This document shows, piece after piece, positions 47,792-60,536 of a stretch of 64,000 nucleotides of DNA (positions are counted from its first letter, which is position 1; every line of letters starts with the position of its first letter). Position numbers and translations under genes: made by a program. The notes under the pieces are model-generated. The model saw nothing but the letters and a program-made list of their open reading frames with translations, had not been told where the DNA came from and searched no databases. The stretch is from Tillus elongatus (lineage: Eukaryota > Arthropoda > Insecta > Coleoptera > Cleridae), in contig OZ023267.1 in the NCBI GenBank assembly GCA_964006375.1, positions 83,995,406 through 84,059,405 of the forward strand, read 5' to 3'.

Positions 47792-48659
47792 TTAATTCGA
47801 CTCTTTGGAGTTTCCCGACGCCGGAGTGAACTGTATTGCATTCACATGGCGGGAATGGCGATTCTCAGGCACGGAATAGGGCGCAGCTCGGGCAGGTCTC
47901 GCATGGTGGACCCGCATGTGCTCGTCTCGGTTCAACCCCATCGGGGAATTTATTCGGAACATCACTATGTTTTCCTGATACTTTAAGAACTCAGCCGCTT
48001 TGGTTAGGGATACCTGATCTGTTAAATGCCATAGCGACTGTACTTGCACCGGAAAGTGGCGCATGAATGGTTCCACCAAGCTTACCTCTAGAATTGGGGT
48101 GGTAAGAAGCCTAGCCAAACTGACATAGTAGGCAAAATGTTCCGACATACTGCGTTTCTCTGACCAAATGGTCGTTTGTATAAGATGCCTAAGCTTGTCT
48201 TGTTCAAGCGAAGACCAAAATGTATTTAGAAAATTGCGGCGGAAGTCTGCGTACTCAACCCACTGCGAATTATATATGCTTGCCCAGTTTCTAGTTGGGC
48301 CTTCTAGGCACCCCAGCACCAAGTCGAGTTTTTGTGACTCAGATGTGCGCATCTTAGTAAAGAAGTATCGAGACAGATCCTCCAAGAAGTGAACCGGGGT
48401 GTCTCTCGGGGACTGGAGAACTTGAGAGGTGGCTCAAGATGCGAGACCACTATCTGGGAAGCGGGAATAGATGCCGTGGGACTGCGGTCACCACGGGGAG
48501 TGCCTCGGAAGTTCTGCGTATTTGCACGAATTTCGTTCCTCAGGGACTCAAAGCCTTCTCTAGATGATCGAGGCTGCTGCTGCAGCTCGAGTGACATTTC
48601 AGTAAATGTATTTATGCCTTGCGACAGAATCTCACGTTGGGTTTCATACGCAACCGTTT
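47792..48659 (-). pseudogene. LTR retrotransposon gag, interrupted by the virus-like element
   Basis: Minus-strand frames 48597-48304 and 48385-47792 together resemble a gypsy-type gag: an N-terminal Gln/Arg-rich region, then EDLSRYFFTKMRTSESQKL, NWASIYNSQWVEYADFRRNF, and MSEHFAYYVSLARLL with HFPVQVQSL. A frameshift near 48390 separates the two frames. The reading frame also extends upstream to the 48660 junction. The 5' side of the same locus is at 60537-61010, displaced by the 11.9-kb insertion. Confidence 0.7.
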
Positions 48660-48665
48660 GTCTTT
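48660..48665. repeat. Target-site duplication, left (GTCTTT)
   Basis: GTCTTT directly abuts the left terminal inverted repeat, and the identical six bases follow the right terminus at 60531-60536. Six-base duplications are the hallmark of Polinton/Maverick-type integration. Confidence 0.9.
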
Positions 48666-48710
48666 AGTAGATAGTGCGACACCTGGGCTCACCCTCTCCA
48701 CTTTTTTTCT

Positions 48711-48741
48711 GCGCATGCGTGATGACGTCACGCGCATGCGC
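48711..48741. other. Near-palindromic terminal hairpin, left
   Basis: GCGCATGCGTGA, then TGACGTCA overlapping at the centre, then CGCGCATGCGC: a 31-bp imperfect palindrome 45 bp from the terminus, with a perfect TGACGTCA (CRE-like) core. The same palindrome is in the right repeat at about 60455-60486. It could fold as a hairpin at a replicating end or bind a bZIP factor. Both roles are inference. Confidence 0.7.
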
Positions 48742-48749
48742 TGTAGGGT

Positions 48750-48870
48750 GACATTTGACAGCTGGCCTGTCAGCTGTCAACGTCAGGTGTCAGACCTGTC
48801 AGTTGTCAGCTGTCAGATGTCAGATCTGCCCTGTGTGACAGCTGTCAAATGTCAGATGACGTCACAAGCG
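48750..48870. repeat. TGTCAG/CAGCTG iteron-like cluster, left end
   Basis: Dense imperfect repeats of CTGTCAG, GCTGTCA and GTGTCAGA motifs, many centred on CAGCTG. The mirrored cluster is at 60325-60445 in the right end. The same CAGCTG core recurs near rep (53015-53085) and in the 13-bp array (56915-57600). Confidence 0.8.
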
Positions 48871-49539
48871 TTCCAAGATGGCTGCCCTGTGATAGACAGC
48901 CGCAACCCGGGTCTCTATGGAACTGTCTTATGTCAGATGTTCCGTCTGACCTGTACAGAGAGATATCTACAAGTCAGGTCTCCATGTGTGTTTGTCGAAT
49001 ACCAGCTGTCTGATTGTTTATTAAGGTTATGTTCGTATACAGACTGATTACCAAGCATCTGTTTGTTTATTAAGGTTATGTATTTGTTTATTAAGGTTAT
49101 GTTCACACACGTGTTGATTACCAATCATCTGTTTGTTTATTAAGGTTATGTTTGTATTTGTTATGTCGTCAACGTGTTATCTGTTTGTTTATTAAGGTTA
49201 TGTTTGTATTTGTTTCTTAAGGTTATGTTCACACACGTGTTGATTACCATTCATCTGATTGTTTGTTAAGGTTATGTTTGTATTTGTTATTTGAATGCAA
49301 ACAGACATGATAATACAAGAGTGTACTTACATACAACAAGAGACGTCATCCTTCTTTCACAGCTTAACACACACACTACTGAACAGGTGTCTTCTGTGTT
49401 GAGGAAACAGACAGACAGACAACTGATTGCCATTGTTAAAGCTTGTACATGCTGTTTGAAAGGATATAACACACGTCATGACAGTTCGAAGTCTTTGCTT
49501 AGACTGACAGATGTATGTGTATTTGAAAGAAAAGCATTC

Positions 49540-49640
49540 GCCTGAAATTAGATTTGAACCCACGAACCTCGAATCGGGCATAGACAGCTTTCTCAGATAT
49601 ACACTGTCCCTAAACCAATAGCTCCACAGACGCACACGAT
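49540..49640 (-). other. tRNA-like segment in left terminal repeat
   Basis: On the minus strand: a D-arm-like GAGCTATTGGTTTAGGGACA (A-box-like) and, about 50 bases on, a B-box-like GTTCGTGGGTTCAAATC. The partner in the right repeat (59635-59725, +) gives a better D-arm pairing (CTAT...ATAG). Acceptor and anticodon stems are not convincing, so I call it tRNA-like only. It could act as a pol III promoter or be a captured tRNA or SINE head. Confidence 0.45.
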
Positions 49641-50410
49641 AAAAGTTTGTTCGCTGTTGTATATAAAACAAAACCTGTTGTTGTTTACATATGAGGTTAG
49701 GTGTTCGTATACATGTTGATTACCAATCATCTGATTGTTTAGTAAGGTTATGTTTGTATTTGTTTATTAAGATTAGGTGTTCGTATACAGGCTGATTACC
49801 CTGCCATCCAATTGTTAGTAAGGTTATGTTTGTACTTGTTATTTGAATGCAAACAGACATAATAAGAAGAGTGTACTTACATACAGCAAGAGACGTCATC
49901 CTTGTTTCACGACTTAACACCCACTGAACAAGTGTCTCTCTCTTGTATTAAGGAAACAAACTGATGTAAGAGAGAGAGAGAGAGAGGCCTTACAAAAGGA
50001 TAAACAACGTTTTACAGTTGTTAACCTTGATCCTGTTTGAGCTTGTCTGTGTATCTGTTTAATATACACAAGAGAGAGGTCCTCTTAAAGGTAAACAACG
50101 TGTCAGTTGATGACCTTGGCGAATGTTATCTTGTGTTATATCTGTTGAATCACCCCTGCAGTCGTGTTTGCGCTTGTCTAGAATACAGACAAAACCCAAA
50201 GGATGACATCATCACATTATTTGTGTTTGTAGAAAAGGCCCCCGCTAACACCTTAAATCGTTCCTATTTCCCATAAGATTCTATGTATTTTAGCCTAATA
50301 TAGAGCTTTTGACACGGTTTCCCATAAGAAACAACGTAATTGTAGACACACACACATTTAGTAAGGTTTCTGTGAAAACAAATATAGTTTTAAAAACAGC
50401 TATTGTGGCA

Positions 50411-50511
50411 GCATATATACATTGGCTACACACACTCTAAAGCTCATTCACAATTCAGTTGTCGTTGAGAAAAGACGTGCTTCAGTTTACTCTACCCAAA
50501 TCTGTTTCAAA
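50411..50511 (+). promoter_or_regulatory. Promoter and 5' UTR of the KilA-N gene
   Basis: TATATA box at 50414-50419. Two initiator-like sites follow: TCATTC at 50444-50449 (32 bp downstream) and the arthropod-type TCAGTT at 50455-50460. The AATTCAGTTG around the latter also occurs at the capsid gene's initiator. The first ATG after either start is 50512. Confidence 0.55.
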
Positions 50512-51447
50512 ATGGCTACATTAAGTGATGTGTGTTACCAGCAAATTAAAGACAACTTCTGGTATGGTCTATTTGGAGACTTTCAACTTATTATCGATAA
50601 AAACACTGGCTATTTTAATGCAACTAAACTGTGTAAGATTGGTGAGAAAAGATTCAGACATTGGTTGGAAAATAAAAAAACTAAAGAGTTGATTGCCTAT
50701 TACAACAGTCGGCTAAAGGAAGAGTTAGGGTTTCAGCACAACGACATGACAAGTGTTTCAACTGAGGGAGCCCACTTAGAGTTATCGCCAGGGAGCCGGA
50801 CTACTAGCCCCCTTAAAACGGAAGCAACAACTCAAGTAATACCAACAACAGCTACATATCTGGTGGACTTTGGTGGGAGACAGGCTGAAAACAACTTGAT
50901 ATCTGGTACATATGTGTGTAAAGATTTAATATTAAATTTGGCTTGTTGGATATCCATTCGGTTCTATGACAAATGCACCCAAATTATTTCTGATTTTTTC
51001 CTAAACGTATTTGATCAGAAATACAGGGACAGCCTAGATGCGATTGAAGTAAAATTAATGGAGATAAATGATGAGGTGCAGCGTATGCGAGAAACAAATG
51101 CTAAAGTCACAGAATATCTTGAAGATATATCCCCAAAGCCAAGTAACCGGGGAAAAATAAGTGTGTTTGGTTTACTTGCAAGAAACGAGAAAGACGCCCC
51201 CTATCCATATCATGCCGTAAGAACACAAAAGAAAAGTTTCCCCAGGGCTGTGAGGAACTTTAAAAATAAACACCCCGACGCCCAAGTGATCCTAAACAAG
51301 CTGTACGATCCAAATTCAGTAAATCTCTTTAACAGAATCAAGACTGAAGTGAAATACCTTACAGCACATAGAAACAACCTACGTATAGCAGATGTACCAC
51401 AAGATAAGTTTGTTCAGGATATTATTGCTTTAAGACATACTTTTTAA
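50512..51447 (+). CDS. KilA-N / MSV199-type protein with DUF3627-like C-terminus
   Basis: 311 residues. I chose ATG 50512 because upstream in-frame codons include no ATG and a TATA/initiator pair sits just before it. Residues ~17-60 form the first half of a KilA-N fold (LFGDFQLIIDKNTGYFNATK). After a Ser/Thr-rich insert of about 60 residues comes the second half (TYVCKDLILNLACW, then CTQIISDFF). A short coiled coil follows, then a C-terminal domain starting SVFGLLARNEKDAPYPY, like the DUF3627 domain paired with KilA-N/MSV199 in insect large DNA viruses. KilA-N proteins bind DNA, so a role in regulation or replication is likely. An AATAAA lies at 51459-51464. The gene is intact here, and its partner in the right arm is a deleted remnant. 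Confidence 0.8.
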   Translation: MATLSDVCYQQIKDNFWYGLFGDFQLIIDKNTGYFNATKLCKIGEKRFRHWLENKKTKELIAYYNSRLKEELGFQHNDMTSVSTEGAHLELSPGSRTTSPLKTEATTQVIPTTATYLVDFGGRQAENNLISGTYVCKDLILNLACWISIRFYDKCTQIISDFFLNVFDQKYRDSLDAIEVKLMEINDEVQRMRETNAKVTEYLEDISPKPSNRGKISVFGLLARNEKDAPYPYHAVRTQKKSFPRAVRNFKNKHPDAQVILNKLYDPNSVNLFNRIKTEVKYLTAHRNNLRIADVPQDKFVQDIIALRHTF

Positions 51448-51786
51448 TTGTATTACAAAATAAAAACACAGTAATTTTAACAAAGACTTTTATTTGATTC
51501 TAAGTACAAGTATGTAAACTCTTGGAATACATTTATAGAATTATTAACATTAGATGGTTCAGTGTTGCGTTGGTGCTGTTGTTGTTGTTGTCGTTGGTGC
51601 CTCTTCATGGCTGTGGGTTTACTAGGTGATAACACTAGCTTCTTTTAGTTCTTCCAAGATTGACTGAATTTCGTTGTTATGAGCATTATTACCTGCAACT
51701 TGGGAAGCCACTAAAAGTCTAAGTCTGTCAACCAACTCGTTTATGTCATTCCAATACACATAGGCTATTTGTTTGTTATTTTGTAT
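51416..51786. repeat. Inner continuation of terminal repeat, left arm
   Basis: Inverted match to 58690-59070. It covers the last ~30 bp of the KilA-N gene, both poly(A) signals (AATAAA at 51459 on +, and TTTATT at 51486-51491 for the minus strand) and the last ~160 bp of the DUF8207-type gene. Homology ends sharply at 51786, where the rep-flanking inverted repeat begins. Confidence 0.85.
51627..51786 (-). pseudogene. 3' fragment of the DUF8207-type gene, duplicate
   Basis: The minus-strand peptide from YMIQNNKQIAYVYWNDINEL to the stop is identical to the C-terminus encoded at 58690-58860. The 5' nine-tenths of the gene is absent, replaced at 51787 by the rep cassette repeat. This shows the gene end was once part of the terminal inverted repeat. 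Confidence 0.85.
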
Positions 51787-52037
51787 CATAGGATCCTGGA
51801 CACTCCATTTAAATACATGTAAATTTTGTAGTCTACTATGGACAGTCAAGTCTACCTCTGGACATTTAAGTCAACCCTGGACATAATTATAACGGTGTTT
51901 AAATGGAAATAGATTGAATTATTTTGCGGGGAGTCAGGTATGGACAAGGTGTTGTTAATAATAAAAACAGTGGTAAAATATAAAAATATAATATATTTAC
52001 TCAAGTGTACACTACAGCAAGTTAACTAATTTCAAAA
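51787..52037. repeat. Rep-flanking inverted repeat, left arm
   Basis: Begins GGATCCTGGACACTCC and matches, inverted, 53385-53636 with very few differences. It includes the last codons and stop of rep. The outer ends of both arms read ATAGGATCCTGGAC in the outward-to-inward direction. Confidence 0.9.
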
Positions 52038-52830
52038 TTGTCTCCCTTTGCAATTCTGCCTTTTTATTTAGACCCAGCTCCATTAACTGTTTGATCAGCT
52101 GTTTCTTTTGAACTTGTTTTTCTCTGTACGCCTTTCTGATTGCAATTCCCTTTTCTGTTTGGTAAAACAGTCTTCTCTTTTCATTAGCTTCCTGTCTTCT
52201 ACGAATACCCGAAGCTCCTCTGGTGCACTGGCAAGTCTCTTTATTGTGCAACTCGTTCACTGATGCGTAAACTAATACGTTTTTAACTCCTTTTGATGCT
52301 AAACATGATATTTCATCTCTTACAGAAGCACACATTTTTCCTCTGCCATGCAGCCAAGAATCACAGTACACTTGCCTAGAATAGTGCGAATGCGGCGTTC
52401 CACGAAGACCATCGCCATCTCTTTGAAGGGGTTTCTGCCCATCTGCACAAGCAATATACCTTAATACTCCAACAGCATGATCTAGACAGATTATTTTCTT
52501 GAAAGTTGTTTTAGGATGCAAACGTCGCCCTACACGTTGAAGCTTCTTTTTAAATCCCTGAACCGTAGACCCATTTGTAAAAAGTATCAAAGCGTGCATA
52601 TGTTCATGCGCCACACTTCCATCATCTGCTTCTAGATGACATCGACAAATTGAATACCACTTAATATTTGGTACACAAACTAACAAATTAAAATCTTGTT
52701 CATTTAACAGAAGATTAAACCACTGCGTAACACACACCTCGTAATCTTTGGCCATCTCTTGTGGTGAAATCGCCTTAATGTCATTAACATTTAGTAAACT
52801 CAGATAATCAGCTTTTGATATGGAAGTCAT
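52012..52830 (-). CDS. HUH-type Rep-like protein (putative replication initiator)
   Basis: 272 residues, ATG at 52830. Residues 75-84 read HEHMHALILF: H77-M-H79 is the HUH metal-binding pair, preceded by a hydrophobic strand (FNLLVCVPNIKW) and a Cys/His cluster (ICRCH). The candidate nucleophile is Tyr125 in GVLRYIACADGQK, in the position of the Rep YxxK motif. The Lys is not at the usual +4 but four residues further on (K133), so the motif is atypical. The C-terminal third is basic and helical. There is no Walker A, so no superfamily 3 helicase is fused. HUH endonucleases nick an origin and join 5' ends, so a role in starting rolling-circle or rolling-hairpin replication is the obvious inference. 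A TATAAT box lies at 52903-52898. Moderate confidence, as homology could not be searched. Confidence 0.6.
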   Translation of the reverse strand: MTSISKADYLSLLNVNDIKAISPQEMAKDYEVCVTQWFNLLLNEQDFNLLVCVPNIKWYSICRCHLEADDGSVAHEHMHALILFTNGSTVQGFKKKLQRVGRRLHPKTTFKKIICLDHAVGVLRYIACADGQKPLQRDGDGLRGTPHSHYSRQVYCDSWLHGRGKMCASVRDEISCLASKGVKNVLVYASVNELHNKETCQCTRGASGIRRRQEANEKRRLFYQTEKGIAIRKAYREKQVQKKQLIKQLMELGLNKKAELQRETILKLVNLL

Positions 52831-52937
52831 CTTGTAAGAACGATGTGAACAGAATGAATGTCCAGAGAATACTAACCGTGTACACCTAGACTATTCCATT
52901 ATATGGTGCATCTTTAATGATCGCATACTGTCGTCAA

Positions 52938-53090
52938 ACATCGGTGCTGTTCGGATCCGACAAAACATCGGTGTTGTTCGGATCAGACAAACGACCAGTC
53001 AACCAACTAAGACAGACAGCTGTCTAGCAGGACAGACAGCTGTCACACAGCTGTCTAACAGCTGTCTAACAGTACAACGTTCATCTAGCG
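52938..53090. repeat. Candidate origin region: direct repeats and CAGCTG cluster next to rep
   Basis: Two ~26-bp direct repeats (ACATCGGTGCTGTTCGGATC and ACATCGGTGTTGTTCGGATC) lie about 110-160 bp upstream of rep. They are followed at 53015-53085 by repeated GACAGCTGTC and CAGCTGTCTAAC motifs like those of the element ends and the 13-bp array. Repeats beside a Rep gene suit binding sites, but this is inference. Confidence 0.5.
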
Positions 53091-53384
53091 AACTCTAAAA
53101 GAAAAAAAAACTAAGTCAACCACAGGAAATGAAATAACGTTCATCTGTCACGGGCTATCTCGGAAAACTAGGTCACTAACCGAAAACGAGAGCTGTCGAC
53201 ATGCTCAAACACGTATAATGATGATGATGTCATCCTACCAGATATGACAACTGCCAACAGCTGTATTCTAGACAAGCTCAAACACGAATGCTGGGATGAT
53301 GTCATCCTACGGAAATAACACCCAGATTACATTCCAAGGTCACAAACACCAACTGACAGATCTCATTTTACTGTAAAGACAGAC

Positions 53385-53636
53385 AATTTTCAAATTAGTT
53401 AACTTGCTGTAGTGTACACTTGAGTAAATATATTATATTTTTATATTTTACCACTGTTTTTATTATTAACAACACCTTGTCCATACCTGACTCCCCGCAA
53501 AATAATTCAATCTATTTCCATTTAAACACCGTTATAATTATGTCCAGGGTTGACTTAAATGTCCAGAGGTAGACTTGACTGTCCATAGTAGACTACAAAA
53601 TTTACATGTATTTAAATGGAGTGTCCAGGATCCTAT
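53385..53636. repeat. Rep-flanking inverted repeat, right arm
   Basis: Inverted copy of 51787-52037. It carries a duplicate of the last ~9 codons and stop of rep (on the + strand), then the downstream sequence, ending GTCCAGGATCC. Confidence 0.9.
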
Positions 53637-53950
53637 AGAAATAACACAGTTGTTTAATGACATCCACTTGAACCAAACAAAACATATAGACGCTGTTGTT
53701 GATTGTTAACACACACACACACGTCATGACAGCTCGAAGTCTTTGCTTAGACTGACAGAGCTGTGTAATAAAAGACAGACAGACAATTGATTGCCCAACA
53801 AGTATCATATAGAACCTTGTTTGAGCTTGTACAGCTGTTTAACAAACACGTCATGACAGCTCGAAGGCTTTGCTTAGACTGACAGACAGAAAGGGGTTAA
53901 TAAAAATGCAACAAAATAAAAATAAAACAACTGTTTTACATACAATAAAA
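53637..53950. other. Spacer with terminal-repeat-like fragments
   Basis: Two copies of CACGTCATGACAGCTCGAAG followed by CTTTGCTTAGACTGACAGA (about 53722 and 53850). Both resemble 49470-49515 in the left end and 59755-59790 in the right end. No ORF. A minus-strand AATAAA (TTTATT at about 53952) would terminate the capsid gene. Confidence 0.6.
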
Positions 53951-54004
53951 ATTTATTAGGATTAATTAAGTTGTACATATTGATACATAAATGACATACT
54001 ATTA

Positions 54005-55210
54005 TTACATAATGGCTCTAACGATGCCCGTTAGAGGTTTATATTCCATTACACTGTCATGAATAACCAAACAATAAACACGCGTATTTTTAGGGAAGTT
54101 GGCGTGACTCATAAACTCCACCTTAATGTCCACCGTTGAAGACTTGATTGACTCGTTCTGGTGCTGACAGTCAATCACAAATAGAGCTCTGTCTTTAAAC
54201 TCGTCATAATTCAAGATAGTCTCCGACATGTTTTTATAACAGAAGCTTTTTTGAAAATCTGTATACATGTTATAGGCTTCTGCATATTTCGATTTCTCAA
54301 AATCCATATTCATAGATTCATAAGGGTAGCATTCTGAATTTAGAAACACTCGAAGGTCCAACATACCAATGTTATCGAAATAGTCTGACCTCTTCTTCAC
54401 GTTATCCTTACGATCTGTTTGAAATGCTATAATCACATATCGAGGTCTTTCCAAGTTGGTTGCAGTTTTAACAGCCCACACATCTCTGTTGATATCTCTG
54501 AGTGCTGGTAACTCATATATGTCCCATTTGCGGTATGCGAGAAATATAGAGGTGTCTTTGGCTATTTTATCCATCAGTTCCAATTTCATTTTATCATTGG
54601 GAAATACATGTTTTACCTTTAAAAACATATTGGTTACGGTAATTTTTGCTCGTGCCGTACCTGTGCTGTAATAGCCGTTGGAATCGTTTCGACTTCTTGT
54701 AAAGCGGAAAGTATGTTTGCCACAGAGAACTCCTTTGAAATGACGAAAGAAACTGAAGAGGAACCAAACAGGTATGAGCATGTGAAACTTGTTATCATTT
54801 AAGGTGATGTGCTCCGACGACACATTCAGACCGGCGTTGCTAAGAGATTGGGCTTCATTCTTACTGAACGATAGCAGACTTTTGATGATGGTTGTGGTGT
54901 ATGGGTCTCGCACTCGTTCCACTTCCTTGTTATTTAACTCATAGGTCATTGATTCAAACAGAGCTGCTCCTCCATTATTTGACAGATAACAAGCACCAGT
55001 GGCATTTTGGATTGCTACAGGTTCCAGAGCACCTTCGATTATTAGAGCTGACTCGGCCAGACATACGAACGCATCTTGTTGGTTGATGGCTATTTCAATT
55101 TCATCGCTGTTACCAAACGATTTAGTTGGTGAATAGTAAGAGCGCAGCTCTTCTCGATCGATGCCATCATCAAACACGGGTTCTTTGAATATTTCTAGTT
55201 TTGACGACAT
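54005..55210 (-). CDS. Double-jelly-roll major capsid protein
   Basis: 401 residues. The start is ATG 55210: the upstream extension of the frame has no ATG and lies before a TATA/initiator. The N-terminus (MSSKLEIFKEPVFDDGIDRE, then NSDEIEIAINQQDAFVCLAES and LFESMTYELNNKEVERVRDP) closely resembles the double-jelly-roll-like domain proteins I recall from insect genomes and Polinton-like viruses. The length suits a compact double jelly roll. It would form the hexon-like capsomer of an icosahedral particle. The frame is intact. It is encoded on the same strand as, and just downstream of, the minor capsid gene, with its own promoter between them. Confidence 0.8.
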   Translation of the reverse strand: MSSKLEIFKEPVFDDGIDREELRSYYSPTKSFGNSDEIEIAINQQDAFVCLAESALIIEGALEPVAIQNATGACYLSNNGGAALFESMTYELNNKEVERVRDPYTTTIIKSLLSFSKNEAQSLSNAGLNVSSEHITLNDNKFHMLIPVWFLFSFFRHFKGVLCGKHTFRFTRSRNDSNGYYSTGTARAKITVTNMFLKVKHVFPNDKMKLELMDKIAKDTSIFLAYRKWDIYELPALRDINRDVWAVKTATNLERPRYVIIAFQTDRKDNVKKRSDYFDNIGMLDLRVFLNSECYPYESMNMDFEKSKYAEAYNMYTDFQKSFCYKNMSETILNYDEFKDRALFVIDCQHQNESIKSSTVDIKVEFMSHANFPKNTRVYCLVIHDSVMEYKPLTGIVRAIM

Positions 55211-55277
55211 GATAACCCAGGCTTTGCAGGAACTCAATATTATCGGGACGAAGCGTACCCTTTGACGTGTCTGACTC

Positions 55278-55314
55278 AACTGAATTTGATGTGGTAGATG
55301 CACTTGCTTTTATA
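55278..55314 (-). promoter_or_regulatory. Promoter of the major capsid gene
   Basis: On the minus strand TATAAAAG runs 55314-55307 and an arthropod-type initiator TCAGTT runs 55283-55278. The initiator A at 55281 is 33 bp from the TATA start. This gives a ~70-nt 5' UTR before ATG 55210 and rules out longer N-terminal extensions. It implies host RNA polymerase II transcription. Confidence 0.65.
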
Positions 55315-55332
55315 TCCTTAAAGGCCAACATA

Positions 55333-56043
55333 CTAAGCAACTTTTATAAGTTTCAAGCGAACAGACACCTCTTCACCTTGAAAGTTGACAGGAACTGAAT
55401 CTTGGTCGACGATGTCGATGCTTATATTGGAAATCTCTTGCTTGTTCACCGGCAAGTAAATTAAATTTTTAGGTTCTATGTCGATTGCGTAGCCAGGATC
55501 AACCATCGGAGCAAACTCATACAGCGTATGTGAGGGTTGTCCGTTATAATAGGAACCAGACACAATATTGATTTCGATGCGAATCTGTCTAACATCCACT
55601 ATATCAACAGGTAAATCAGATTCATAAAAGGTGTCCGGCTGAAGAACTTGTTTTGAAAAGCCCAACATTCGCCCAATCGAACCATCAAATTCAAAACTGA
55701 CATTTGTATAACACTTTAGTCTACATTTGATGGTGTTCGGATTAGGTCTCAGAATCAGAGCCTGTTGCTTTTGTTCGTGTGTTGCTGTAGCACCAACAAG
55801 TTCATTTTGAAGTAACTCTTCCAAGTGTGTTATTTCATAAGCACCGGTGGGTATCGTGATGGTTCACCAACCGGTTCCTTCTTTTACATGAAATTTGTTT
55901 TTACCTTCATAGATGTTGGGTATGTTGTTGTAGGTGTGAAAGCCTATCAAGGCAACAGCATAATTACCATCCAAAACAATTGGTGGATGGTAGTCTGACG
56001 ACAGATGGGAGCTGCGGCCTTTCAACACAAAGGTGTGCGCCAT
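55333..56043 (-). pseudogene. Minor capsid (penton-like, single jelly roll) protein, one in-frame stop
   Basis: From ATG 56043 the frame reads through an N-terminal conserved segment (HTFVLKGRSSHLSSDYHPPI, then YAVALIGFHTYNNIPNIYEG) to a TGA at about 55862. The same frame continues, open, to 55333 with the rest of the family pattern (RMLGFSKQVL, INIVSGSYYNGQ, LYEFAPMVDPGYAI, YLPVNKQEISNISI). I know this pattern from capsid-associated proteins of insect Polinton-like elements. A minor capsid or penton role is inferred from that. A single nonsense codon breaks it, unless it is read through. The ATG at 56154 is in frame but lies too near the TATA box to be used. Confidence 0.7.
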
Positions 56044-56154
56044 GACTGATACACACAGGCTACTGTTTGAGTCTTTTATTGCAATGGTTTTTGCAGATAC
56101 AACCCATAACCGGAGCGCTGTTTCTTGAGATACATGCCTTTGTCTCACTTGCAT

Positions 56155-56199
56155 TCATATATATACACACCCCAAAAATATAGTTTAGTTTAAGTTAAG
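56155..56199. promoter_or_regulatory. Shared divergent promoter, minor capsid (-) and packaging ATPase (+)
   Basis: A TATATATA tract at 56157-56166, readable on both strands, is the only TATA-like site between the two divergent genes. For the ATPase it lies about 40 bp before ATG 56200, giving a very short leader. For the minor capsid it leaves room for a leader before ATG 56043. Confidence 0.45.
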
Positions 56200-56895
56200 A
56201 TGCGTACCAGCAAACACGCTTCTGCCTTACCCATTACAAATATAGACGATGTTGTTACGGACACAGCTCAACAACAACTGAGGCATGGTCCTCTCTTTCC
56301 AAACACAGTTCGCTGTATCATATGTGGTCCGAGTGGGTGTGGTAAAACTAATGTCATGCTGAGTTTGTTGTTTGAAGCAAACGGTTTAAAATTTGATAAC
56401 GTGTATGTGTATTCAAAGTCTCTGTATCAACCGAAATACAAGATGTTAAAGGAGGTGATGAATGCAACAAAAGGTGTTGGTTACTATCCTTATAGAGAAA
56501 ACGATGAAATATTAGATCCGGCAGATGCCAAGGACAACTCTGTGTTTATATTTGATGATGTAGCTTGTGACAAACAAGATAAAATAAGAGCATACTTCAG
56601 TATGGGCAGACATAAGAATATTGATTCATTCTATCTCTGTCAAACATATACACGAATACCCAAACATCTGGTACGTGACAACACCAATGTTGTTGTGTTA
56701 TTCAAGCAAGATGAAACCAATTTAAAACACGTGTACGACGATCATGTAACCACCGATATGGACTTTAAACAATTTAAAACTATCTGCTACCAATGCTGGA
56801 AAGATAATAAGTATGGTGTGTTGGTGATTGTGAAGGAAAACGATGTATACAAAGGTCGCTATAGAAAAGGATTCGATAGATATATATTATTCTAA
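56200..56895 (+). CDS. A32/FtsK-HerA-type DNA packaging ATPase
   Basis: 231 residues, intact. Walker A GPSGCGKT at residues 43-50, after a strand (TVRCIIC). Walker B VFIFDD at 115-120 after a conserved Asp/Asn. A further conserved FYLCQTYTRIPKHLVRDN contains the sensor-like Gln of the family. The length and motif spacing match packaging ATPases of adintoviruses, Polintons and Polinton-like viruses, which pump the genome into the capsid. Divergently placed from the minor capsid gene, it completes a capsid assembly and packaging module. Confidence 0.85.
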   Translation: MRTSKHASALPITNIDDVVTDTAQQQLRHGPLFPNTVRCIICGPSGCGKTNVMLSLLFEANGLKFDNVYVYSKSLYQPKYKMLKEVMNATKGVGYYPYRENDEILDPADAKDNSVFIFDDVACDKQDKIRAYFSMGRHKNIDSFYLCQTYTRIPKHLVRDNTNVVVLFKQDETNLKHVYDDHVTTDMDFKQFKTICYQCWKDNKYGVLVIVKENDVYKGRYRKGFDRYILF

Positions 56896-56914
56896 CGATG
56901 ATAGACAGGACAGT

Positions 56915-57600
56915 CAGCTGTCTAACACAGGTGTCTAACACAGATGTCATACAGGTGTCTAACACAGCTGTCATACAGCTGTCATACAGCTGTCTAACAC
57001 AGCTGTCTAACACAGCTGTCTAACACAGCTGTCTAACACAGCTGTCTAAGACAGCTGTCTAACACAGCTGTCTAACACAGCTGTCTAACACAGCTGTCTA
57101 ACACAGCTGTCTAACACAGCTGTCTAACACAACTGTCTAACACAGCTGTCTAACACAGCTGTCTAACACAGCTGTATAACACAGCTGTCTAACACAGCTG
57201 TCTAACACAGCTGTCTAACACAGCTGTCTAACACAGCTGTCTAACACAGCTGTCTAACACAGCTGTCTAACACAGCTGTCTAACACAGCTGTCTAACACA
57301 GCTGTCTAACACAGCTGTCTAACACAGCTGTCTAACACAGCTGTCTAACACAGCTGTCTAACACAGCTGTCTGACACAGCTGTCTGACACAGCTGTCTGA
57401 CACAGCTGTCTAACACAGCTGTCTAACACAGCTGTCTAACACAGCTGTCTAACACAGCTGTCTAACACAGCTGTCTAACACAGCTGCCTAACACAGCTGT
57501 CTAACACAGCTGTCTAACACAGCTGTCTAACACAGCTGTCTAACACAGCTGTCTAACACAGCTGTCTAACACAGCTGTCTAACACAGCTGTCTAACAAGA
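56915..57600. repeat. 13-bp tandem array (ACAGCTGTCTAAC)n, about 50 copies
   Basis: The unit ACAGCTGTCTAAC repeats almost perfectly from 56990 to 57595, with diverged units before that (ACAGGTGTCTAAC, ACAGCTGTCAT). Variants include TGACAC blocks at 57370-57410. Each unit holds the palindrome ACAGCTGT. It lies between the ATPase stop and the next gene, with no room for another promoter except inside the array. The same core occurs in the element's ends and near rep. Confidence 0.95.
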
Positions 57601-57636
57601 CAGCCAGACATCGTGATAAATAAGAAGGCATGTACC

Positions 57637-58861
57637 ATGAAGGAGTCAGTGTATGTTAAACCACCACACAACCTGTATCGCTCAAACAAATTATTAGACC
57701 AGCTGGTAATACCGACCAGTTGTAGCACAATGGAAGTGTTGGGTAAGGAAGAGCGAAAAGTTAAGAAAAGGATTTTACAACTTGCTGACAATATTCGAAA
57801 AAAACATTTAATGCTTAAACTTAACAGAGCTGAGAATGATGATGCTCTGCAACGTTTATATAAACCACTTGTTGAGCCCCTAAGTGAAATATCTAAAAAC
57901 ACAGCAGCACTGCAGCAGCAGCAGCAGCCCCCACAACCACCAAAGGCTGAACAAATCAAAGACGAAGTCGATATACCAGAAACGAAACCCCAAGTAGAGT
58001 TCCTTAAAGACCATGAAGTTTTTGAAGCTGAACCAAGGGAAGAGGCTGAGGAGACAAGTTCCGATGAGGATATCCCAACATTTGAAGAGCTTGAGGCAGA
58101 CCTACAAACTGTCACATCCAACCCTGCATATCAAGAATTTTTGGAGCAATATCCTGAACGAGTTCGATATTATGTAGACAAGTATTTTACTGAACCACCA
58201 AGGCTCGCTACCATTGATCAAACGTATGGTGCTCGCTACGCTAAAGATACCGGTAGCTGGAGTGTTGGTAACAAACACTTAGACTTTACTGATGCTGAGA
58301 TTCAACTGGGCCAAAGGAGATACCCGCAAACACAAGGTTTGCTAGAATTGTTATTTATGAAAAGACCCCGGGGGTATACTTATGACGATCTTCAACACTA
58401 TAGAGATATTCTAGAAGCAACTAGTGTGCATAAAATGAACTATGATCCTAACGCCCGAACCAAGGGTTGTTCCTCTGAAAAGTATCTGACTCTAATAAAA
58501 CCAGTGATAAATCCACGAGGTCGTAGATCCTCAACTCCTCAAGGTTTTGGTTACACCTACGAGGAAGACGATGACGACAGCAACGTCAGACATCTTAACA
58601 AAAAAACAAAAGACTGAACTTAAAACTCACAGTGATAAGAGCAGCGATAGCAACGGCATGAGCCCTAACAACAACATCAGCACCAACAACTATATGATAC
58701 AAAATAACAAACAAATAGCCTATGTGTATTGGAATGACATAAACGAGTTGGTTGACAGACTTAGACTTTTAGTGGCTTCCCAAGTTGCAGGTAATAATGC
58801 TCATAACAACGAAATTCAGTCAATCTTGGAAGAACTAAAAGAAGCTAGTGTTATCACCTAG
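57637..58861 (+). pseudogene. DUF8207-type protein, split by a frameshift at an A7 run
   Basis: From ATG 57637 (context ACCATGA) there are 326 codons to a TGA at 58615-58617. An N-terminal coiled coil (VKKRILQLADNIRKKH) is followed by a Gln/Pro run and an acidic region. The conserved domain comes next (TYGARYAKDTGSWSVGNKHL, GLLELLFMKRPRGYTYDDLQ, KYLTLIKP), matching the pattern I recall as DUF8207 in insect proteins. The family's C-terminal motif (YWNDINELVDRLRLL ending in IEEL-like ILEELKEASVI) lies in the +1 frame, ending at 58861. The shift coincides with AAAAAAA at about 58602-58608. Function is unknown, but its linkage to capsid genes suggests a virion or assembly role. AATAAA at 58993-58998. 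Confidence 0.7.
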
Positions 58862-59070
58862 TAAGCCCACAGCCATGAAGAGACACCAACGACAACAACA
58901 ACAACAGCACCAACGCAACACTGAACCATCTAATGTTAATAATTCTATAAATGTATTCCAACAAAGAGTTTACATACTTGTACTTAGAATCAAATAAAAG
59001 TCTTTGTTAAAATTAATGTGTTTTTATTTTGTAATACAATTAAAAAGTATGTCGTAAAGCAATAATATCC
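58690..59070. repeat. Inner continuation of terminal repeat, right arm
   Basis: Inverted match to 51416-51786: the end of the DUF8207-type gene, the intergenic poly(A) region and the last codons of a KilA-N copy on the minus strand. Confidence 0.85.
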
Positions 59071-59125
59071 TGACAGTAGTCCGGCTCCCTGGCGATAACT
59101 CTAAGTGGGCTCCCTCGGTTGAAAT
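59017..59125 (-). pseudogene. KilA-N gene remnant with large internal deletions
   Basis: On the minus strand, 59125-59076 matches 50757-50804 of the KilA-N gene (the segment encoding STEGAHLELSPGSRTT). It is followed directly by sequence matching 51418-51447, the gene's last codons. About 610 bp between those parts and about 570 bp upstream (50191-50757) are missing. It shows that the right arm once carried a full copy. Confidence 0.85.
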
Positions 59126-59634
59126 ATTTAGGGTATCAGTATTCCGATACCCTTGTATTCTAGACAAGCTCAAACACGACTGCAGGGGTGATGTCATCCA
59201 ACAGATATAACACAAGATAACATTCGCCAAGGTTAACAACTGTAAAACGTTGTTTACCCTAAGTGGGCCTCTCTCTTGCGTATATTAAACAGATACACTG
59301 ACAAGCTCAAACAGGATCAAGATTAACAACTGTAAAACGTTGTTTATCCTTTGTAAGGCCTCTCTCTCTCTTACAGCAGTTTGTTTCCTCAATATAACAG
59401 AGAGAGACACTTGTTCAGTATGTGTTAAGCAGTGAAACAAGGATGACGTCTCTTGCTGTATGTAAGTACACTCTTGTATTATGTCTGTTTGTATTCAAAT
59501 AACAAATACAAACATAACCTTACTAAACAATCAGATGATTGGTAATCAACATGTATACGAACACCTAACCTCATATGTAAACAACAACTGGTTTTGTTTT
59601 TTATATATACAACTGCGAACAAACTTTTAACGTG

Positions 59635-59725
59635 TGCGTCTGTGGAGCTATTGGTTTAGCGATAGTATCTGAGAAAGCTGTCTATGGCCGATTCGAGGTT
59701 CGTGGGTTCAAATCTAATTTCAGGT
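59635..59725 (+). other. tRNA-like segment in right terminal repeat
   Basis: Inverted partner of 49540-49640. The D-arm-like AGCTATTGGTTTAGCGATAG pairs CTAT with ATAG around a typical loop. The B-box-like GGGTTCAAATC is at about 59704. The remaining cloverleaf is not convincing. Confidence 0.45.
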
Positions 59726-60454
59726 GAATGCTTTTCTTTCAAATACACATGCATCTGTCAGTCTAAGCAAAGACTTCGAGCTGTCATGACCTACGTATGT
59801 TATATCCTTTCAAACAGCATGTACAAGCTTCAACAATGGCAATCAGTTGTCTGTCTGTTTCCTGAACACAGGAGACACTTGTTCAGTATGTGTTAAGCTG
59901 TGCAACAAGGATGACGTCTCTTGCTGTATGTAAGTACACTCTTGTATTATGTCTGTTTGCATTCAAATAACAAATACAAACATAACCTCAACAAACAATC
60001 ATATGACAAACAGATAACACGTTGACGACATAACAAATACAAACATAACCTTAATAAACAAACAGATGATTGGTAATCAACACGTGTGTGTGAACATAAC
60101 CTTAATAAACAAATACATAACCTTAATAAACAAACAGATGCTTGGTAATCAGTCTGTATACGAACATAACCTTAATAAACAATCAGACAGCTGGTATTCG
60201 ACAAACACACATGGAGACCTGACTTGTAGATATCTCTCTGTACAGGTCAGACGGAACATCTGACATAAGACACTTCCATAGAGACCCGGGTTGCGGCTGT
60301 CTATCACAGGGCAGCCATCTTGGAACGCTTGTGACGTCATCTGACATTTGACAGCTGTCACACAGGGCAGATCTGACATCTGACAGCTGACAACTGACAG
60401 GTCTGACACCTGACGTTGACAGCTGACAGGCCAGCTGTCAAATGTCACACGACA

Positions 60455-60486
60455 GTGCATGCGCGTGACGTCATCACGCATGCGCA
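60455..60486. other. Near-palindromic terminal hairpin, right
   Basis: GTGCATGCGCGTGACG followed by TCATCACGCATGCGCA: the inverted partner of 48711-48741, with TGACGTCA at the centre, 44 bp from the terminus. Confidence 0.7.
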
Positions 60487-60530
60487 GAAAAAAAGTGGAG
60501 GGGGTGAGCCCAGGTGCCGCACTATCTACT

Positions 60531-60536
60531 GTCTTT
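60531..60536. repeat. Target-site duplication, right (GTCTTT)
   Basis: Identical to 48660-48665 and directly abuts the right terminus of the virus-like element. Confidence 0.9.

What the first reader, a model, noticed from the sequence alone, without database searches (positions are those of the whole stretch)
48666..60530. Capsid-encoding virus-like transposon with a Rep instead of a polymerase B
Seen: clean 6-bp duplication, long inverted ends, major capsid, minor capsid, packaging ATPase, KilA-N, DUF8207-type protein and an HUH protein, all in 11.9 kb. Known: Polintons and adintoviruses normally carry protein-primed DNA polymerase B and an rve integrase. Inference: this lineage keeps the particle module but has swapped, or never had, the polymerase, using Rep-primed replication by host polymerases. 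That combination would be a distinct class of Polinton-like element.
Basis: partly seen in the sequence, partly recalled or inferred. Interest (0 to 1): 0.95.

Follow-up and report, generated by a model that had tools for sequence, protein, structure and literature searches.

The report
Polymerase-free capsid element with hitchhiking transposon
A virus-like element in what looks like an insect genome makes its own particle proteins but has no DNA polymerase, and the replication-type gene seen inside it belongs to a separate small jumping gene that landed in this one copy.

Summary
The feature is real: an 11,865-bp element (48666-60530) with a 6-bp target duplication, long inverted ends, a double-jelly-roll capsid gene, packaging ATPase and KilA-N gene, and no polymerase B or integrase. 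The explanation 'Rep instead of PolB' fails. The HUH gene sits in its own 1,843-bp inverted-repeat unit (51791-53633, TA-flanked), one of at least 142 HUH genes in this 1.72-Gb genome; five places read are 2.5-2.65-kb palindromes with no major capsid gene in the 10 kb read. None of 29 sister capsid loci carries it within 1.5 kb of the capsid gene. The capsid family is recent and abundant (103 scored copies of 7,308 candidates, 99-100% identical, no stops). One sister, read in two pieces, shows TIR - KilA-N - 375-aa ORF - repeat array - ATPase - pX-like ORF - minor capsid - major capsid - TIR, with no PolB, integrase or HUH gene. So this is a capsid-only Polinton-like lineage, probably copied and inserted in trans; PolB genes exist elsewhere in the genome, but a helper with the same ends was not shown. 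Unexplained: HUH units and capsid element share CAGCTGTC repeats, so Rep acting in trans is not excluded.

The parts
48660..48665 (.). left copy of 6-bp target-site duplication GTCTTT
60531..60536 (.). right copy of 6-bp target-site duplication GTCTTT
48666..50187 (+). left terminal inverted repeat (outer 445 nt 99%, inner part with indels); contains CAGCTGTC-type motifs; outer 445 nt rich in palindromes (fold z -4.4)
59154..60530 (-). right terminal inverted repeat
50512..51447 (+). KilA-N + DUF3627 protein (start taken from the ATG of sister L053)
   Evidence: 97% nt in sister L053
51414..51790 (+). inner inverted-repeat arm: KilA-N 3' end plus inverted 3' end of the gene at 58547-58861; ends where the HUH unit begins
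58693..59124 (-). partner arm on the right side, with a remnant of KilA-N (59075-59124)
51791..53633 (-). nested HUH unit (1,843 bp; arms 51791-52052 and 53372-53633; flanking TA at 51789-51790 and 53634-53635)
52012..52830 (-). HUH-endonuclease-like protein, 272 aa, no helicase domain found
53015..53067 (.). CAGCTGTC repeats upstream of the HUH gene, shared with the capsid element
54005..55210 (-). major capsid protein, double jelly roll (PF21738)
55333..56154 (-). probable minor capsid gene, interrupted by an in-frame stop in this copy (open pieces 55336-55863 and 55867-56154)
56200..56895 (+). packaging ATPase (Pox_A32-like)
   Evidence: 98% nt in L053
56915..57597 (.). 13-bp CAGCTGTCTAACA tandem array, 53 copies
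57613..58861 (+). gene of unknown function, split here into two frames (57613-58617, 58547-58861); one 375-aa ORF in sister L053

Best explanation
Two mobile elements lie one inside the other. (1) The host element is a capsid-only, Polinton-like provirus or transposon that encodes a particle (major capsid, probable minor capsid, packaging ATPase, and in 24 of 30 fetched loci a pX-like protein) and a KilA-N protein, but no polymerase, integrase or Rep. It most likely multiplies as a helper-dependent element: a Polinton-type integrase acting in trans would give the 6-bp duplication and AG..CT ends, and a polymerase from a helper or the host would copy it (inferred). (2) The HUH gene belongs to a small inverted-repeat transposon that inserts at TA, often as a head-to-head palindrome with two HUH genes. 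A deletion form of it sits at the inner end of the left terminal repeat of this one copy. Shown: anatomy, independent distribution of the two elements, absence of HUH beside the capsid gene in sisters, no PolB or integrase frame in the sister read. Inferred: supply in trans, and how the HUH transposon moves.
For: HUH separate: 142 scored HUH genes of 719 candidates, 138 without stops, with 30 head-to-head pairs and no tail-to-tail pair; five complete palindromes of 2,518-2,649 bp with arms 98.7-99.8% identical, none with a major capsid match in the 10 kb fetched; 34 of 35 ends (26 of 27 distinct flanks) are preceded by ATA, fitting a TA duplication at YATATR; the right arm of the host element fits the empty target; a similar short form, 1,865-1,866 bp with 262-nt arms, occurs twice in L018; in another capsid-element copy (L016) a HUH unit sits elsewhere, at the 5' end of the minor capsid gene; 0 of 29 sister loci have the unit within 1.5 kb of the capsid gene. 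Capsid-only lineage: the sister on C1, read as L053 and L025, has KilA-N, 375-aa ORF, array, ATPase, pX-like ORF, minor and major capsid, with terminal-repeat sequence on both sides and no long unassigned frame. Recent: 103 scored capsid genes (7,308 candidates) without stops, mean 3.5 differences per 1,206 nt among 30. Possible helper: 77 scored PolB candidates of 809, many with open frames above 1,000 aa.
Against: No helper with the same ends was shown: the terminal-repeat search did not complete. The one PolB place whose flanks were read (L054/L055) matched no part of the element. Only one capsid-PolB pair lies within 30 kb among 103 x 77 listed, about what chance gives (0.28 expected, my arithmetic). 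Only one sister was read widely, its outer ends were not read, and not all its frames were scanned with Pfam (one search scanned three of them). Capsid variation gives only weak evidence of constraint: 6 sites separate the window copy from all 29 others, 4 synonymous and 2 not. The shared CAGCTGTC repeats and the 81-nt match between the HUH upstream region and the terminal repeat show a link between the two elements that plain nesting does not explain. Listed copies are the best-scoring ones, so divergent PolB-bearing relatives could be missed.
Confidence: 0.8

Rival explanations
1. The HUH protein is the capsid element's own replicase: Rep nicks the ends and host polymerases copy the element.
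For: No PolB in the element; catalytic-type residues conserved in the HUH family; its upstream region shares an 81-nt block and CAGCTGTC repeats with the element's ends and array.
Against: The HUH unit is absent within 1.5 kb of the capsid gene in 29 of 29 sister loci and absent from the one sister read widely; it has its own TA-flanked inverted repeats and lives at many other places.
Confidence: 0.04
2. A split (two-part) Polinton: one set of elements carries PolB and integrase, another carries the capsid module, and both share ends and are packaged together.
For: Capsid copies and PolB copies are both numerous, and the listed ones are rarely neighbours (1 pair within 30 kb of 103 x 77).
Against: The PolB flanks read at C4:44.3 Mb show no shared end or gene; PolB elements were not read whole, so they may hold capsid genes of another lineage.
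Confidence: 0.2
3. An ordinary internally deleted adintovirus: PolB and integrase were lost in a recent deletion, and full-length copies remain in the genome.
For: Polinton-type ends and duplication; PolB genes occur in the genome.
Against: The sister copy has the same gene set without them; the many near-identical capsid copies show an established family.
Confidence: 0.2
4. The HUH gene is cargo of a Tc1/mariner-like non-autonomous transposon, moved by a DDE transposase supplied elsewhere; HUH itself does not move it.
For: TA target, palindromic target preference YATATR, long repeats with 20-bp internal repeats.
Against: HUH frames have no stop in 138 of 142 listed genes; no DDE gene with these ends was looked for.
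Confidence: 0.4

Closest known systems
Polintons / Mavericks / adintoviruses (Eupolintoviridae)
   Same: 6-bp target duplication, long inverted ends, DJR capsid, packaging ATPase; pX-like ORF in sister copies (resemblance by eye, recalled)
   Different: no protein-primed PolB and no rve integrase in the window copy or the sister read
Meldviruses lacking PolB and integrase, and adabscoviruses without a discernible replicase (PMC11071296, section 16 and passages read); polinton-like viruses, which mostly lack pPolB and RVE-INT (PMC11071308, passages)
   Same: particle module without PolB and integrase; in adabscoviruses no recognisable replicase either
   Different: PLVs are said there to carry other replication proteins; here an abundant integrated family with Polinton-type ends
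Mriyaviruses (PMC11253617, passages)
   Same: DJR capsid viruses without DNA polymerase, with a HUH endonuclease
   Different: 35-45 kb viruses, thought to infect unicellular eukaryotes, in which HUH is a conserved own gene; here HUH is in a nested foreign unit
Rep-bearing inverted-repeat transposons (geminivirus-like in Tuber, parvovirus-like in lower animals; PMC3198968, passages)
   Same: Rep gene between terminal inverted repeats, multi-copy
   Different: here a helicase-less HUH protein, TA-flanked, often head-to-head palindromes with two HUH genes
Tc1/mariner elements with long inverted repeats
   Same: TA duplication, short single-gene form, repeats inside the ends (comparison recalled)
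   Different: the encoded protein is HUH-like, not a DDE transposase

Membership tests
Polinton/Maverick (Eupolintoviridae) | 6-bp target duplication and terminal inverted repeats | tested here: met
Polinton/Maverick (Eupolintoviridae) | protein-primed DNA polymerase B | tested here: not met
   no frame or Pfam match in the window copy; no such frame in sister L053/L025
Polinton/Maverick (Eupolintoviridae) | rve integrase | tested here: not met
   same calls; an integrase in trans was not tested
Polinton/Maverick (Eupolintoviridae) | DJR major capsid and packaging ATPase | tested here: met
   PF21738 258.6 bits, cut-off 27; Pox_A32 37 bits, cut-off 22.8
Polinton/Maverick (Eupolintoviridae) | single-jelly-roll minor capsid | tested here: inconclusive
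   no Pfam match; model of one piece pLDDT 42.5
Polinton/Maverick (Eupolintoviridae) | Ulp1-type maturation protease | tested here: inconclusive
   no Pfam match in the pieces scanned
HUH endonuclease superfamily | HUH motif and catalytic Tyr in the following helix | tested here: met
   H77 120, H79 121, Y125 120 of 121 sequences; strand 73-84, helix 116-127 in the model
HUH endonuclease superfamily | Lys of motif III (Yx2-3K) | tested here: not met
   Cys at the third place after Tyr125 in 120 of 121; the fourth place varies, Lys in 53 and Ala in the window protein
HUH endonuclease superfamily | HUH fold | tested here: inconclusive
CRESS / parvovirus Rep | SF3 helicase domain | tested here: not met
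   272 aa, no Pfam match
Helitron | no inverted repeats, insertion between A and T, Rep-helicase (recalled) | tested here: not met
   long inverted repeats and TA flanks; no helicase match
Tc1/mariner | TA duplication | tested here: met
   34 of 35 ends; one comparison with an empty target
Tc1/mariner | encodes a DDE/D transposase | tested here: not met
   the ORF found in the unit is HUH-like; supply in trans not tested

The most novel reading that the evidence does not exclude
A two-element partnership: the polymerase-free capsid element and the HUH transposon share the CAGCTGTC repeats because the same HUH Rep works on both. The transposon would supply Rep in trans to start copying of the capsid element (by host polymerases) and would in return travel in its particles, with the head-to-head palindromes as inverted-dimer products of hairpin-type replication.
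Probability: 0.12. Interest if true: 0.92.

Novelty: new variant of a known kind. Interest (0 to 1): 0.65.

Why it matters
An abundant, recently active, particle-encoding family without any recognised polymerase or integrase raises a testable question: who replicates and inserts it. It suggests helper relations between mobile elements inside one animal genome, like those of virophages or satellites. The TA-flanked, often palindromic HUH transposon would itself widen the range of HUH mobile elements in animals. The case also warns that a Rep gene inside a virus-like element can be a passenger.

Tried and rejected
Rejected: Rep as PolB replacement in the element. Set aside: judging from contig lengths alone that the HUH unit is discrete (117 HUH contigs, median 1,361; 56 capsid contigs, median 3,382), since internal repeats of one element could give the same. 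Set aside: no shared named species between HUH (Psylliodes) and capsid (Sitophilus, Onthophagus, Phaedon, Zygogramma, Monomorium, Vollenhovia), as absence from a protein list is weak and one search showed 120 of 172 rows. Weakened on checking: the sum of codon differences (261 synonymous, 58 not) counts the same few sites many times; one search finds 23 variable sites, 6 of them separating the window copy from all others.

Led nowhere: PDB sequence searches with HUH and capsid profiles, PHROGs and NCBIfam (only weak or general matches besides KilA-N-type and ATPase families), viral, phage and prokaryote collections, protein search with the 334-aa ORF (none of 1,126 candidates), Rfam and tRNA scans (only sub-threshold microRNA-like hits, nearly all in the repeat array), model of the minor capsid piece. 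Fold search in the virus library gave Glossina hytrosavirus proteins of unknown function (E 2.3e-4), not followed. In some searches my KilA-N coordinates were one base out of frame; KilA-N protein identities and its GC3 are not used, only DNA comparisons. My notebook entry counts 28 of 29 ends; the right count is 34 of 35. The motif counts outside units included further HUH pieces in L016 and L018; corrected counts are. The presence of capsid-element DNA beside HUH units (6 of 11 loci holding units: L012, L014, L015, L016, L018, L020) has no genome-wide background, so no enrichment is claimed.
Full report
What is there. The element at 48666-60530 is bounded by the 6-bp duplication GTCTTT and by inverted ends that start AGTAGATAG. 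The outer 445 nt differ at 6 sites, the middle part has 39 mismatches and many gaps, and an inner pair of arms has 4 mismatches in 377 sites. It encodes a KilA-N/DUF3627 protein, a DJR capsid protein, a packaging ATPase, a probable minor capsid protein (broken here by an in-frame stop) and a protein of unknown function (split in two here). No PolB or integrase frame was found. Between ATPase and the unknown gene lies a 53-copy array of CAGCTGTCTAACA.

The HUH gene is a passenger. The gene is flanked by its own inverted repeat (262-nt arms, 4 mismatches). In the own genome 142 HUH genes were scored out of 719 candidates, 138 without stops, 89-100% identical; they form 30 head-to-head pairs and no tail-to-tail pair. 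Of 12 regions fetched around HUH copies, 11 hold units. Ten units with two clear ends were compared besides the window's: five are complete palindromes of 2,518-2,649 bp with arms 98.7-99.8% identical; four are 1,994 or 1,865-1,866 bp; one, in L019, lies inside further copies. The window unit is 1,843 bp. 34 of 35 ends, in 26 of 27 distinct contexts, follow ATA, and the base before that is C or T in 26 of 27 contexts. The right arm of the window element gives a matching empty target for a TA duplication, so I read the target as YATATR with TA duplicated. A second capsid-element copy, L016, carries HUH units (one whole, one piece) at the 5' end of its minor capsid gene; beyond them no capsid-element sequence was found on that side. 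Thus the unit moves independently of the capsid element.

The capsid family. 103 capsid genes were scored (7,308 candidates), all listed ones 99-100% identical to the window's and free of stops. Thirty were fetched with 1.5 kb on each side, one of them the window copy. In the other 29 there is no HUH unit; only L024 matches it, through the CAGCTGTC array. 3' of the capsid gene the sequence runs into terminal-repeat-type DNA (listing cut at 700 characters per locus). A pX-like 177-aa ORF, seen in L025 and L026, lies before the minor capsid gene; its core was found in 24 of 30 loci and not in L023 (the window), L024, L030, L031, L037 and L044. The 30 capsid genes differ by 3.5 of 1,206 nt on average; the window copy is the outlier, 9-14 differences. 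Six sites separate it from all others, 4 synonymous and 2 not, which is only weak evidence of constraint. One sister was read further as L053: terminal repeat, KilA-N, tail-to-tail 375-aa ORF, an array with 75 hits of the motif, ATPase; its other part (L025) holds pX-like ORF, minor and major capsid and terminal-repeat sequence. No PolB, integrase or HUH frame was seen. Its outermost ends could not be read.

Who copies and inserts it. PF03175 finds PolB at many places (77 scored of 809 candidates, many frames above 1,000 aa), so PolB genes exist in this genome. Only one of 103 x 77 listed capsid-PolB combinations lies within 30 kb (about 0.28 expected by chance, my arithmetic). At one PolB place the flanks show no sequence of the element. 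The 6-bp duplication and AG..CT ends are those of Polinton integrases (recalled). Supply in trans is therefore my best explanation, but a helper with matching ends remains to be found.

The unexplained link. CAGCTGTC occurs 57 times on the + strand of the window element and once in the other 52,135 bases. The motif (either strand) stands inside all ten other HUH units examined, near the middle of the palindromes; in L014, L015 and L019 it runs at 13-bp spacing, as in the capsid element's array. Further than 400 nt from any HUH-unit match it occurs 34 times in L014, twice each in L016, L018 and L020, once in L009, and not at all in L010, L012, L013, L015, L017 and L019; so apart from L014 the neighbourhoods hold little of it, capsid-element DNA or not. 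The sister without a HUH unit has the array. The window unit also shares an 81-nt block at 86% with the right terminal repeat, and its upstream region aligns with the KilA-N upstream region (score 90, maximum 25 in 100 shuffles). Either sequence has been exchanged between the elements, or one protein binds both. I keep the second as the novel case.

Known versus new. PLVs and meldviruses without PolB and integrase are in print (PMC11071308 passages; PMC11071296 section 16 and passages), and so are particle-encoding genomes without a discernible replicase (adabscoviruses, same preprint, passage), DJR viruses with HUH (mriyaviruses, PMC11253617 passages) and Rep-bearing inverted-repeat transposons (PMC3198968 passages). 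I saw no description of a capsid-only, high-copy animal family with Polinton-type ends, nor of TA-flanked palindromic HUH transposons, in the listings; most listed papers were not opened, the library is incomplete, and two relevant papers were not held. Host: the record is unnamed; the nearest named relatives are beetles, so 'insect, perhaps beetle' is inference.

Noticed in passing
L017:645-4468: Tandem array of six 719-bp partial HUH units (end plus HUH C-terminal part plus upstream block), suggesting rolling or slippage amplification of the unit.
   Followed up: no
G000 C4:101.72-101.74 Mb, C5:117.39-117.40 Mb, C2:60.86-60.87 Mb, C1:258.26-258.27 Mb, C8:44.45-44.46 Mb and C8:59.44-59.45 Mb: PolB genes occur as inverted pairs about 12-13 kb apart, so PolB elements too may be large palindromes.
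   Followed up: no
window:51790 and 58693: The inner inverted-repeat arm of the capsid element ends within a few bases of the HUH unit's end, as if a break at the unit's end had been repaired by copying the other arm.
   Followed up: partly
window:48666-49110: The terminal repeat is rich in palindromes and folds far better than shuffles (z -4.4).
   Followed up: no
window:43830-46339 and 47792-48597: Retrotransposon-like frames (reverse transcriptase and gag-like by eye) to the left of the element.
   Followed up: no
window:52012-52830: Closest fold matches in the virus library are uncharacterised Glossina hytrosavirus proteins (E 2.3e-4), a possible viral relative of this HUH family.
   Followed up: no
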